Shown: piece after piece, positions 8,589 to 13,686 of the stretch | Layout of the letters: each line of letters opens with the position of its first letter | How positions within the stretch are numbered: the stretch's first letter is position 1 | Origin: Chloroflexota bacterium | Lineage (GTDB): Bacteria; Chloroflexota; Anaerolineae; Aggregatilineales; Ch27 | DNA: 35,597 nucleotides | Assembly: GCA_019873685.1 (NCBI GenBank) | Contig: JAIOAT010000040.1 | Location: 1 to 35,597, forward strand | Reading direction: 5' to 3' | The notes under the pieces: generated by a model | What the model was told of the DNA's origin: nothing | What the model saw: only the letters and a program-made list of their open reading frames with translations | Database searches by the model: none | Position numbers and translations under genes: made by a program

Positions 8589-9101
8589 ATGATCACCGTC
8601 AAGATCTGCCCGACCTGCAAGCACGAGAACGCCGAAGACGCGGCCTACTGCGTTCATTGCGGGGCGCTGCTGGTCAGCGGGCGCAGCGATACCACCACCC
8701 GACCGGTCAGCGAGACGGAAATCCTCAAGCTGGCCGCCGAAGCTGCGCCCCCGCCAGGGGCCAAAGCGCCGCCCGCTGCTGCGTCGCTGGCGCTGTTTGT
8801 CGTGGGGCAGGAACACCCCATCCTGGTCGGCCAGGAACAGACGATTATGCTGGGGCGCGGTGGGAGCGGGGACAGCGGCCCGGCGTTGATCGATCCGCAA
8901 CTGGCCAGCCGGGCCGGGGTATCCCGCAACCATGCCAGCATCAGCTATGCGGATGGCGTCTACACCATCAAAGACCTGGGCAGCACCAACGGCACCTGGG
9001 TCAACAACAAGCGCCTGCTGGCCCAGATGCCGTATGTCCTGCAGAGCGGCGACCAGATCCGGCTGGGGGCGCTGGTGATCTACGTCTACTTCCAGGGGTA
9101 G
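8589..9101 (+). CDS. Zinc-ribbon FHA-domain protein (170 aa)
   Basis: The protein starts MITVKICPTCKHENAEDA and has a CxxC...CxxC zinc-ribbon (CPTC, CVHC) in the first 27 residues. An Ala/Pro-rich linker follows, then an FHA domain over about residues 75-165 with the expected markers: LGRGG at the first phosphopeptide loop, SRNHASI (Ser-Arg-Asn-His) and DLGSTNGTWVNN. FHA domains bind phosphothreonine peptides. The gene is cytoplasmic by sequence and lies 97 nt upstream of a Ser/Thr kinase on the same strand, so it is a natural reader of that kinase. An upstream in-frame GTG (8547) would add 14 residues. I chose ATG 8589 because zinc-ribbon FHA proteins usually begin just before the first CxxC, but no strong ribosome-binding site decides it. 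Confidence 0.85.
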   Translation: MITVKICPTCKHENAEDAAYCVHCGALLVSGRSDTTTRPVSETEILKLAAEAAPPPGAKAPPAAASLALFVVGQEHPILVGQEQTIMLGRGGSGDSGPALIDPQLASRAGVSRNHASISYADGVYTIKDLGSTNGTWVNNKRLLAQMPYVLQSGDQIRLGALVIYVYFQG

Positions 9102-9198
9102 CCGCGCCGGGCGGCGGAACTCCCAGGTATCGTGCTTTATCGGCGGGATGGTCTTCCTGGAACCCGGCAACATCTGCACACTGAGGCGGGCAGCCCAT

Positions 9199-12100: not shown

Positions 12101-13686
12101 GCAACCCCGCCATCGCCCGGCGGCTGGAAGGCCACACCGGCGCCATCTATGCCGTCGCTTTTAGCCCGGATGGCCGCCTGATCGCTTCCGCCGGCGAGGA
12201 GCAGACCATCCACCTGTGGGACGCCGCCACCGGGGAGCCGCTTGGCGATCCGCTGGCCGCTCATGCCAACTGGGTGCTGGCCCTGGCCTTCAGCCCGGAT
12301 GGGGCACGCCTGGCTTCAGTCGGTGTAGACGCCAGCATAGTCCTGTGGGATGTACCGACCCGCCGTGCGCTGGGCCGTCTGCAGAACGCCCACGGCGGCT
12401 GGATCCGGGATGTCGCCTTCAGCCCGGATGGGGCGCGTCTGGCTACCGCCAGCATGGACGGCACACTGCGCCTGTGGGATGCCGCCAGCGGCCTGCTCAC
12501 CGCCACCCTGAGCGGCCACCGTGACGCTGTGTGGAGTGTTGCCTTCAGCCCGGATGGATCGTTGCTGGCTTCCGGCGGGCAGGATAATGCCGTCGTGCTG
12601 TGGGCCAGCGAGCCGGGCCAGCGGCTGGCCCATCCAGTCGCCCCCGATCTGCCCCCGGCGGCGAGCATCGCCTTCAGCCCGGATGGGGCGCTCGCGGCGA
12701 CAGCCACCGGCCAGTACCTCGGCCCGAACCAGAGCAGCGCCATCACCCTCTGGTCACTCGCTGACGCCAGCCCCGGCAGTCCGCCGTCCTCGGTCACGCT
12801 GCAGGGTCACGCGGAAGTGGTCACCGTGGTCGCCTTCAGCCCGGATGGCACTCGGCTGGCTTCCGGCAGCGTCGACCAGGCCGTGCGCCTGTGGGCTGTG
12901 ACGCCGGATGGCGCGGCGGCGCCGGTCGGCGAACCGATGCCGGGCCATGCCAGCGCCGTGATCAGCCTGGCCTTCAGCCCGGATGGCTCGCGGCTGGCTT
13001 CCGGCGACGACGACGGCATGATCCTGCTATGGGACGCCGCGACCGGAGCCGCCACCGGCGATCCGCTGCAGGGGCACAGCGACAGTGTGACGGCGCTGGC
13101 CTTCAGCCCGGACGGGCAGCGGCTGGCTTCCGGCAGCCGGGATGGGCAGATCGTGCTCTGGGACATGACCGATCGTCGCCAGATCGCGGCCTTCCCGGCC
13201 CACGATTCCGCGGTGATGACCCTGGCTTTCAGCCCGGACGGGCAACTGCTGGCTTCCGGCGGGCGGGATAACCTGATCAGGCTGTGGGATGCCGCCAGCG
13301 GGCAGGCAATCCGTCCGCCGCTGGCCGGGCACGCACACTGGGTGCTCAGCGCCGCCTTCAGCCCGGACGGCTCCACGCTGGCGACCGGCAGCCGCGACGG
13401 GAGCATCCTGCTGTGGGATGTCGGGACGGGGCGACCGCTTGGCGCAGCGCTGGCGGGGGAAGGCGGCTGGATCACCGCCCTGGCCTATGCCGCTGACGGC
13501 CAGACCCTGCTGACCGGCAGCACAACCACGGCCATCACCCGCTGGGATGTCGGCACGGCTGTCTGGGCGCAGCACGCCTGCCAGATCGCCGGGCGCAACC
13601 TGAGCGCGGAGGAGTGGGCGCAATACCTGCCCGGCGCGGATTACCGGGCAACCTGCGCAGAAGCGGAGTCCCAACAGGCAGGATAG
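9199..13686 (+). CDS. Ser/Thr protein kinase-STAND NTPase-WD40 receptor (1,495 aa)
   Basis: ATG 9199 has GAGGCGGG at 9183-9190 and starts just before the kinase fold; in-frame ATG 9148 lacks a proper site. Kinase domain about residues 8-275: glycine loop GVGGFGAVY, VAIK lysine K41, catalytic loop HQDIKPGN with D135 (Gln replaces the usual Arg, so a non-RD kinase), DFG, and GTPLFMAPEQ. Near 311 begins a STAND-type NTPase (NPYKGLRAF...DFFGRE), with Walker A GPSGSGKSS near 356 and Walker B LLLVIDQFEEIF near 443. One membrane helix lies near 758-782 (LFIASLILFALISLGLA). Residues about 846-1454 carry 14 WD40 repeats, enough for two seven-bladed propellers. The tail has a Cys pair (HACQIAG, YRATCAEA). 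The likely topology is kinase and NTPase inside, propellers outside, with ligand binding transmitted to the kinase. The gene ends one base before the convergent pyrF. Confidence 0.92.
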   Translation: MQLQDVRVIKGYLLTDLIGVGGFGAVYRAQQPIVDREVAIKAILPEYANHPEFIRRFEAEAQLIARLEHPHIVPLYDYWREPDGAYLVMRLLRGGNLHDRLALEGAWSLEATARMLDQVAAALDAAHRRGIVHQDIKPGNILLDEDGNCYLADFGIAKNLLDAQEMLRKGPRIGTPLFMAPEQFSPEGAVTPQTDIYSLGIVLYATLTGRVPFAHAETTMIIRSHLNDPLPPVQFARPELPHEINAVLRCATAKEPEARYESALAMAADFRQVIPGLATVPVPPASMLAPAADMPTDASTIVLQGRALELQNPYKGLRAFQEADASDFFGREALTARLLRRLQDPDRAGRFLAVVGPSGSGKSSVVQAGVIPMLRQGYVSGSARWFIVRMQPGADPFAELETALLRIALAPPPDMPARLRGSVEGLASIVPQILPDDDSDLLLVIDQFEEIFTQTGDEALRTRFLKSLHHAVTAPDCRLHAIITLRADFYDRPLLYPDFGNLIREQTEVVLPMNAKELEQAILRPAERAGLTIEPVLARALVDDVIEQPGALPLLQYTLTDLFERRQDSTLTYAAYQEAGGVSGTLARRADELYEHLPPPRQKLARQLLLRLVAVSEGTEATRQRVKWGALLSLAPEQDRQAIRDILDLFGRNRLLTFDHDPQTREPTVEVAHEALIREWDRLQSWLEENRADLLTQRRLATAILEWNNAGRDPSYLATGNRLAQFEAWRASTTLTLNADEIAYLDASVALRRRAANRLRLFIASLILFALISLGLAKFAFDQQAATALQARISRSRELAATAITNRAALDLSLLLSLEALRSADTFEARSSLLTGLQAQPQLITFLHGHTDWVRDVAFSPDGRVLASAGRDGAIRRWDVAARQPIDPPLTGHTDWINSLAFSPDGSRLASASRDGTIRLWDAASGEPIGEPLTGHAAEVWAVAFSPDGATLVSGDAEGGLLLWNLSGNPAIARRLEGHTGAIYAVAFSPDGRLIASAGEEQTIHLWDAATGEPLGDPLAAHANWVLALAFSPDGARLASVGVDASIVLWDVPTRRALGRLQNAHGGWIRDVAFSPDGARLATASMDGTLRLWDAASGLLTATLSGHRDAVWSVAFSPDGSLLASGGQDNAVVLWASEPGQRLAHPVAPDLPPAASIAFSPDGALAATATGQYLGPNQSSAITLWSLADASPGSPPSSVTLQGHAEVVTVVAFSPDGTRLASGSVDQAVRLWAVTPDGAAAPVGEPMPGHASAVISLAFSPDGSRLASGDDDGMILLWDAATGAATGDPLQGHSDSVTALAFSPDGQRLASGSRDGQIVLWDMTDRRQIAAFPAHDSAVMTLAFSPDGQLLASGGRDNLIRLWDAASGQAIRPPLAGHAHWVLSAAFSPDGSTLATGSRDGSILLWDVGTGRPLGAALAGEGGWITALAYAADGQTLLTGSTTTAITRWDVGTAVWAQHACQIAGRNLSAEEWAQYLPGADYRATCAEAESQQAG
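11734..13560 (+). repeat. Fourteen WD40 repeats
   Basis: Repeats of about 42-47 residues built on GH...V..(V/L)AFSPDG..LAS.S.DG.I.LWD. Counting the AFSPDG cores gives 13, plus a degenerate fourteenth (LAYAADG). The eighth lacks the opening GH and carries a longer loop, which would mark the border between two seven-bladed propellers. At DNA level the core CCTTCAGCCCGGA(T/C)GG recurs almost unchanged. Confidence 0.9.

What the first reader, a model, noticed from the sequence alone, without database searches (positions are those of the whole stretch)
8589..13686. FHA reader next to a kinase-STAND receptor with two outside propellers
The kinase, STAND NTPase, membrane helix and 14 WD40 blades are in one chain. 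The single helix lies between NTPase and propellers, so the propellers would be outside the membrane; a Cys pair at the extreme C-terminus would suit a disulfide there. A zinc-ribbon FHA protein is encoded just upstream. Together they form a plausible signal path: ligand on propellers, NTP-driven switch, threonine phosphorylation, FHA binding.
Basis: partly seen in the sequence, partly recalled or inferred. Interest (0 to 1): 0.58.

Follow-up and report, generated by a model that had tools for sequence, protein, structure and literature searches.

The report
Outside-propeller kinase with two conserved partners
In a little-studied group of bacteria, a membrane-spanning enzyme with two propeller-shaped sensors apparently outside the cell travels with a secreted protein and a phosphate-reading protein, which looks like a complete, undescribed signal pathway that can now be tested.

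Summary
At 8589-13686 a zinc-ribbon FHA protein (170 aa) precedes one long chain: Hanks-type kinase, nSTAND1 NTPase, one hydrophobic helix, 14 WD40 blades and a tail with a Cys pair. Its own refutation test does not refute: an FHA gene lies within 200 bp in 21 of 34 closest relatives and 0 of 39 others. The gene before the FHA gene (7235-8536) encodes a secreted SH3b protein; a homologue lies within 3 kb of 30 of 36 closest relatives. All three genes occur together in 23 of 34, in six arrangements. I read this as a ligand/receptor/reader cassette: the secreted protein acts on the propellers, clustering switches the STAND NTPase, and the kinase phosphorylates the FHA protein (OdhI/GarA-like Thr motif). 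Linkage and topology are well supported; every binding and phosphorylation step is inference. New variant of a known kind.

The parts
7235..8536 (+). Secreted SH3b protein (433 aa; probable start 7253), third member of the cassette
   Evidence: Pfam SH3_3 2.2e-8; hydrophobic signal-like N-terminus; homologues linked to the kinase in relatives
7253..7336 (+). Signal-peptide-like segment of the secreted protein
   Evidence: 12-residue hydropathy 2.67 at residue 16; comparable in all 23 homologues with an N-terminus among the 25 listed
7715..7876 (+). SH3b domain of the secreted protein
   Evidence: Pfam residues 161-214
8589..9101 (+). Zinc-ribbon FHA protein, 170 aa
   Evidence: Pfam FHA 2.7e-18
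8607..8660 (+). Zinc ribbon C7, C10, C21, C24
   Evidence: near-invariant columns of alignment A1; Zn_Ribbon_1 24.0 bits, cut-off 25
8691..8708 (+). TTTRPV: candidate phospho-threonine motif between ribbon and FHA domain
   Evidence: T-x-x-[VIL] in 26 of 26 linked proteins, but also in 24 of 29 unlinked zinc-ribbon FHA proteins
8850..9083 (+). FHA domain
   Evidence: Pfam; G89, R90, S112, R113, H115, N134, G135, T136 invariant in 26 rows
9148..13686 (+). Kinase-nSTAND1-TM-WD40 receptor, 1512 aa (probable start 9199)
9241..9975 (+). Hanks-type kinase domain (K58, D152, D170)
   Evidence: Pfam 1.5e-47; residues located
10096..10098 (+). Thr317 in the kinase-STAND linker, T-I-V-L; candidate FHA docking site
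   Evidence: motif in 21 of 23 FHA-linked relatives's rule (22 of 23 by the wider rule)
10135..11340 (+). nSTAND1 NTPase (Walker A at residue 373, Walker B Asp463)
   Evidence: Pfam 1.4e-120
11473..11538 (+). Single transmembrane helix, residues 776-797
11716..12615 (+). Propeller 1 (blades 1-7)
   Evidence: AlphaFold model residues 8-307 match 7-bladed propellers
12616..13548 (+). Propeller 2 (blades 8-14); less confident
   Evidence: rows mostly cover propeller 1 only
13549..13683 (+). Helical tail with Cys1478 and Cys1503
   Evidence: two Cys in the tail of 34 of 34 type A relatives; tail of the model has low pLDDT, about 40-60

Best explanation
A three-gene signalling cassette. The large chain is a single-span receptor: kinase and STAND NTPase inside, two seven-bladed WD40 propellers outside, closed by a disulfide-bearing tail. 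The secreted SH3b protein acts on the outer face, as ligand or as ligand-carrying co-receptor. Occupied propellers cluster receptors; clustering lets the NTPase domains form NTP-bound oligomers (as STAND proteins do, by general knowledge of the class), which brings kinases together and activates them. The kinase then phosphorylates the zinc-ribbon FHA protein on the Thr motif before its FHA domain and/or its own linker Thr317; the phospho-Thr engages the FHA domain (in cis as in GarA/OdhI, or docking on the receptor) and so changes what the FHA protein binds. Shown here: anatomy, sequence signs of topology, conserved linkage of the three genes. Inferred: every interaction, the NTPase switch and both phosphorylations. 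My odds: topology 0.85, functional linkage 0.9, secreted protein acts through the propellers 0.5, kinase acts on the FHA protein 0.6, cis FHA switch 0.3. The confidence given is for the overall pathway.
For: Anatomy. Topology: hydropathy peak 2.2-3.1 in all 73 complete relatives; more K/R before than after the helix in 28 of 34 type A, 12 of 12 type B, 26 of 27 other; type A propeller part 0.04% Cys against 0.18% in the cytosolic part; two Cys in the tail of 34 of 34 type A; Cys number of the ectodomain even in 30 of 34. Fixed design: 14 blade hits in 30 of 34 type A, 13 in 4, similar span. Catalytic motifs in type A: H-x-D 34 of 34, DFG 34, Walker A 34, Walker B 32, catalytic Lys pattern 29. 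Linkage: FHA within 200 bp in 21 of 34 type A, 0 of 12 type B, 0 of 27 other; secreted gene within 3 kb in 30 of 36 type A; all three together in 23 of 34, in six arrangements, and no case with FHA but without the secreted gene. Starting from the two partner families gave one more compact trio in the window's gene order (L268) and one with FHA next to the kinase and the secreted gene 4.8 kb further up (L270). Labels are clustered on the kinase tree: secreted gene 3 changes against a shuffled mean of about 22, FHA 6 against 19.5. The FHA protein's best solved sequence match is OdhI, 5.6e-6.
Against: No experiment. Relatedness: the 34 are not independent (for example nine loci come from five genomes of one genus). 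Seven type A loci lack a nearby FHA gene; four lack both partners (one of these on a short contig). The Thr motif is nearly as common in unlinked zinc-ribbon FHA proteins (24 of 29), so it does not mark this pairing. Linker Thr versus FHA rests on only two independent pairs on the tree. Secreted-protein distances track the kinase as well as the propellers, so no interface is indicated. The secreted family has up to 14 copies a genome; of 20 paralogue loci fetched, one had this kinase adjacent and one had it about 6 kb away. The window's kinase has HQD, not HRD, and no Ser/Thr in the usual activation-loop place, so activity must be shown. No useful TM-less control group (5 proteins, 3 with tail Cys).
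Confidence: 0.45

Rival explanations
1. Two-part system: secreted protein and receptor kinase are the functional unit; the FHA protein is an accessory that joined in some lineages or was lost in others, and the main kinase substrate is elsewhere.
For: The secreted gene is linked more constantly (30 of 36) than FHA (23 of 34), and seven loci have it alone, all directly downstream on the same strand. A second kinase subclade also has the secreted gene and no FHA.
Against: The FHA gene is upstream on the same strand in 18 of the 23 trios, in 17 of these within 102 bases or less, and is kept nearby through rearrangement.
Confidence: 0.25
2. Conflict or defence system: the STAND-kinase senses an invader through the propellers and triggers dormancy or death, with the FHA protein as adaptor.
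For: nSTAND1 was named from conflict systems of multicellular bacteria (PMC8195603 passages). The kinase domain matches PADLOC kinase models, best PD-T4-6 2.1e-84.
Against: The best PADLOC matches cover the kinase domain alone; one model (C3a189, 137.8 bits) reaches into the NTPase; the FHA and secreted proteins match none. Sensor predicted outside; blades are stable within the genus (91% by position, 44% otherwise); no effector domain apart from the kinase.
Confidence: 0.12
3. Propellers are cytosolic: the hydrophobic helix is a hairpin or peripheral anchor, and the WD40 domain restrains the NTPase directly, as in Apaf-1.
For: In Apaf-1 the WD40 domains sit next to the STAND domain (recalled); Apaf-1 is among the best fold matches (3sfz, 3shf).
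Against: Charge bias, tail Cys pair and secreted partner.
Confidence: 0.1
4. The genes are neighbours only, inherited together without acting together.
For: Relatives share ancestry; many loci keep the same order.
Against: Six arrangements of the three genes, while most other flanking genes differ.
Confidence: 0.08

Closest known systems
GlnH-GlnX-PknG-OdhI/GarA cascade (Actinobacteria; PMC9769921 and PMC5448819, passages read)
   Same: Extracytoplasmic protein, membrane protein and Ser/Thr kinase encoded together; the kinase acts on an FHA protein; in GarA the site is an N-terminal Thr-Thr motif whose phospho-Thr is bound by its own FHA domain.
   Different: There the sensor protein, membrane protein and kinase are three chains and the kinase is soluble; here membrane part and kinase are one chain with a STAND NTPase and WD40 propellers, and the FHA gene is in the cluster. 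No sequence relation of the secreted protein to GlnH was seen or tested directly.
PknD of M. tuberculosis (kinase-TM-NHL propeller; recalled, only a search listing seen)
   Same: Kinase inside, one helix, beta-propeller outside.
   Different: No STAND NTPase; one propeller of another repeat type (recalled).
PkwA and bacterial WD-repeat kinases (PMC1262709, PMC5587647, passages read; PkwA propeller 5yzv)
   Same: Kinase and WD40 in one chain; PkwA's propeller matches propeller 1 (Z 47.2, 46% identity). Kinases with 4-14 WD repeats, some in Chloroflexus, were listed in 2005.
   Different: The passages seen mention no STAND domain between, no outside placement and no secreted partner.
Apaf-1 and related STAND-WD40 proteins
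   Same: STAND NTPase followed by two WD40 propellers; among the best whole-ectodomain fold matches.
   Different: Apaf-1 is soluble (recalled); here a helix separates NTPase and propellers and a kinase replaces the N-terminal adaptor.
ArnA (Sulfolobus zinc-finger FHA protein; PMC6509490, passages read)
   Same: Zinc ribbon, linker, FHA domain; part of a Ser/Thr kinase network; sequence match 9.6e-6 over the ribbon.
   Different: ArnA's known partner is the vWA protein ArnB; none was seen among the immediate neighbours here.
nSTAND1 conflict proteins (PMC8195603, PMC10907252, passages read)
   Same: nSTAND1 NTPase in multidomain proteins of multicellular bacteria.
   Different: Those combine with effector-associated or lectin-like domains; propellers outside and a secreted partner were not in the passages seen.

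Membership tests
Hanks-type Ser/Thr kinase | Kinase fold with catalytic Lys, Asp and DFG | tested here: met
   Pfam 1.5e-47; K58, D152, D170 located. Activity not shown; HQD instead of HRD.
nSTAND1 NTPase | Profile match with Walker A and B | tested here: met
   1.4e-120, score 403.9 bits, cut-off 27.1; GPSGSGKSS and DQFEE
PASTA kinases (PknB/Stk1) | Extracellular PASTA repeats; NCBIfam cut-off 450 bits | tested here: not met
   271.9 bits, kinase part only; ectodomain is WD40
PknD-type propeller kinase | NHL-repeat propeller outside | tested here: inconclusive
   Ectodomain matches WD40; only 25 of 63 Pfam rows were shown
OdhI/GarA | NCBIfam equivalog cut-off 200 bits (OdhI) | tested here: not met
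   32.5 bits
OdhI/GarA | Thr-Thr phospho-motif N-terminal to FHA, bound in cis | tested here: inconclusive
   TTTR present; TT in 21 of 26 linked, 18 of 29 unlinked proteins; binding not testable here
Zinc-ribbon FHA proteins (ArnA-like) | Four-Cys ribbon plus FHA domain | tested here: met
   ribbon is just under Pfam's cut-off; one linked relative (L081) lacks the ribbon Cys
Apaf-1-like STAND-WD40 protein | NB-ARC-type STAND, soluble, two propellers | tested here: not met
   STAND domain is nSTAND1 and a TM helix intervenes; two propellers met
Known anti-phage systems (PADLOC) | Whole-protein match with its partner genes | tested here: inconclusive
   Mostly kinase-domain matches; partners match none; no cut-offs given
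Receptor with outside propellers | WD40 part extracytoplasmic | not testable with these tools
   Sequence signs favour it; needs reporter fusions

The most novel reading that the evidence does not exclude
A bacterial receptor-kinase cassette with its own encoded ligand: an Apaf-1-like STAND-WD40 machine set through the membrane, its two propellers outside reading a cognate secreted SH3b protein found only in this order among the genomes sampled, its kinase inside writing on a dedicated FHA reader.
Probability: 0.35. Interest if true: 0.8.

Novelty: new variant of a known kind. Interest (0 to 1): 0.62.

Why it matters
What activates bacterial Ser/Thr kinases is mostly unknown. Here the candidate signal protein, receptor and reader are encoded side by side in many genomes, so ligand, switch and readout can be tested with three purified proteins. 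It would also show a STAND NTPase used as a trans-membrane switch, separated from its WD40 sensor by the membrane.

Tried and rejected
my first FHA profile used minus-strand seeds in the wrong orientation and seemed to show FHA next to few kinases; corrected (still held one out-of-frame seed). Counts in the report use the profile.

FHA protein specific to the kinase by its Thr motif: rejected, unlinked zinc-ribbon FHA proteins have it too. Linker Thr317 as a co-evolved FHA site: suggestive (22 of 23 versus 17 of 47) but only two independent pairs. Secreted protein and propellers co-evolving more than other parts: not shown; six of 25 rows were left out there as duplicates or cut. Tail Cys pair lost when the helix is lost: no usable control set, 5 proteins. 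Blade-by-blade orthology beyond the genus: my blade finder missed blades in most relatives, so only the same-genus comparison counts.

Structure of the secreted protein: model useless, mean pLDDT 31 with two sequences; no solved relative beyond weak SH3b matches. A FecR-like look of its C-terminal half is my impression only. Extension of the long FHA proteins (about 170 aa): no Pfam match worth naming in five proteins.

Not in print? Searches for nSTAND1 with WD40 (2 papers), for WD40, Chloroflexi, transmembrane, kinase, extracellular, NTPase (4), for STAND NTPase, WD40, protein kinase, FHA, bacteria (2) and Aggregatilineales with kinase (10, listing only) showed no description of this cassette; of these I read passages in PMC7159879, PMC8195603 and PMC10907252. 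The library lacks most subscription papers.
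Full report
OBSERVATION. The window is a whole contig of a 4.12-Mb genome. The FHA gene runs from ATG 8589 to 9101 (170 aa). The kinase gene ends at 13686; its start may be 9148 or, by ribosome-site spacing and by comparison with relatives' N-termini, 9199. Pfam finds kinase, nSTAND1 and WD40 far above cut-offs, hydropathy gives one clear membrane helix at 776-797, and the only Cys after it are 1478 and 1503.

WHO HAS IT. A search of 154 genomes of the same order found matches in all, many of them to long kinase-nSTAND1 proteins. 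I fetched 80 regions chosen by hand from that list; with the window they hold 81 kinase-nSTAND1 frames, 73 complete. They are not a random or independent sample. By tail motif I complete ones type A (ACxIANRNL...EW..YF....TC, as in the window), 12 type B and 27 other. Type A is nearly one group on the tree, weakly supported (35 of 36 type A rows, counting two cut ones, in a group of 38).

TOPOLOGY. All 73 have a hydrophobic peak of 2.2-3.1 after the NTPase. K/R counts in the 15 residues before the helix exceed those after it in 28 of 34 type A (2 equal), 12 of 12 type B and 26 of 27 other. In type A the tail has two Cys in 34 of 34, and 29 of 34 have none in the rest of the propeller part; total ectodomain Cys is even in 30 of 34. 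Across phyla, nSTAND1-TM-WD40 proteins, most without a kinase, often end in a Cys pair too: at least two tail Cys in 35 of 47 with a clear helix. This suits a disulfide outside. It is inference, not a topology measurement.

ECTODOMAIN. A profile made from the window's blades counts 14 in 30 of 34 type A proteins and 13 in the other four, over a similar span. The AlphaFold model (4 sequences, mean pLDDT 84.1, pTM 0.63) is blades throughout with a three-helix tail of low confidence. Foldseek's best match is a highly repetitive propeller protein, 2ymu, then Apaf-1; propeller 1 matches 7-bladed structures closely. Two seven-bladed propellers is the natural reading. Within the genus all 14 blades are colinear (91% versus 44% off-register), so they are not being reshuffled there.

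FHA PARTNER. With the corrected profile, an FHA gene lies within 200 bp of the kinase in 21 of 34 type A, 0 of 12 type B and 0 of 27 other; within 2.3 kb, 23 of 34 type A. The proteins share zinc ribbon, Thr-bearing linker and FHA domain; most relatives carry about 170 further residues that the window's lacks and that Pfam scans of five did not name. Zinc-ribbon FHA proteins are common in the phylum (141 of 400 genomes at E 1e-15) and usually stand elsewhere: of 30 loci fetched, only the window's own had this kinase within 1.5 kb. So the pairing is a feature of type A kinases, not of the FHA family.

THE MISSED PARTNER. Clustering the neighbours of type A genes by sequence gave a family of 27 besides the FHA proteins; it includes the window's gene at 7235-8536. 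These proteins have a signal-like N-terminus (all 23 with an N-terminus among the 25 aligned) and four nearly invariant Cys; SH3_3 was found in 19 of the 63 neighbour proteins scanned. A profile finds one within 3 kb of 30 of 36 type A kinases (two of the 36 cut), 3 of 12 type B and 4 of 33 other. Misses in type A: L050, L054, L063 (short contigs or cut), L090, L093, L099. The family is large in the order (138 of 154 genomes at E 1e-15, up to 14 matches) and was not found in the other 299 of 301 genomes of a phylum-wide sample at the stricter E 1e-30, the two hits being the window's genome and one of its order.

THE TRIO. All three genes are together in 23 of 34 complete type A loci; secreted gene alone in 7; FHA alone in 0; neither in 4. 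The 23 show six arrangements of side and strand. In the window the order is secreted protein, FHA, kinase, all on one strand. Starting from the partner families gave one more compact trio, L268, in the same order and with a type A tail, and L270, where FHA and kinase are adjacent (gap about 20 bases, kinase cut by the fetched stretch) and the secreted gene lies 4.8 kb upstream. On the kinase tree the secreted-gene label needs 3 changes and the FHA label 6; 0 of 500 shuffles came as low for either, though close relatives inflate such tests. Keeping linkage through rearrangement is the strongest sign that the genes act together.

HOW IT MAY WORK. The kinase keeps its catalytic motifs, but type A activation loops show no conserved Thr or Ser other than in the GS/GT before the P-E motif, so activation may depend on clustering or on the NTPase rather than on loop phosphorylation. 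Two candidate phospho-sites fit the T-x-x-[VIL] pattern that I recall as a common FHA preference: the FHA protein's own TTTRPV and Thr317 in the kinase-STAND linker (21 of 23 FHA-linked, 9 of 13 type A without, 12 of 45 other). Neither is specific enough to prove pairing. GarA and OdhI offer the precedent: phosphorylation at a Thr motif lets the FHA domain bind its own tail, and the kinase PknG answers to a periplasmic binding protein through a membrane protein encoded in the same operon (passages of PMC5448819 and PMC9769921).

STATUS. Known kinds: Hanks kinase, nSTAND1, WD40-kinases, FHA-kinase neighbours (noted already for M. tuberculosis in PMC1262709). Not found described in the held library by the searches: this architecture with the propellers outside, and the three-gene cassette. 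I rate it a new variant of a known kind.

Noticed in passing
window 1428-7058 and 778-1431: Two TadE-type pseudopilin-like genes upstream; the larger (1876 aa) carries PA14, TSP3 and Big_9/cadherin-like repeats, an adhesin-like surface protein.
   Followed up: no
L049, L051, L053, L054, L057-L067, L092-L098: Zinc-ribbon FHA proteins linked to the kinase come in short (about 170 aa) and long (300-370 aa) forms; the long form's C-terminal part has no Pfam name.
   Followed up: partly
L178, L185, L216, L225, L234, L235 C-termini: A tail resembling C...RNLTxxEWxxY...TC ends nSTAND1-TM-WD40 proteins without a kinase in Streptomyces and Bacteroidota-type records: an unnamed, widely shared Cys-pair tail.
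   Followed up: partly
order-wide; G000:C1:76098-77207, C38:22931-24016: The secreted SH3b family is expanded to as many as 14 matches per genome and was not seen outside the order in 299 other genomes sampled; what the unlinked copies do is unknown.
   Followed up: partly
L070, L113, L118, L119, L120, L123: A second, separate kinase subclade also has a secreted SH3b gene next door but no FHA gene.
   Followed up: no
window 25226-27049 (-): A 608-aa protein with two periplasmic sugar-binding domains in one chain, beside ABC transporter genes.
   Followed up: no
L059, L060, L062, L064, L067: A conserved 345-aa gene sits upstream of the FHA gene in one group of relatives (clustered; perhaps the five SIS-domain hits).
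   Followed up: no
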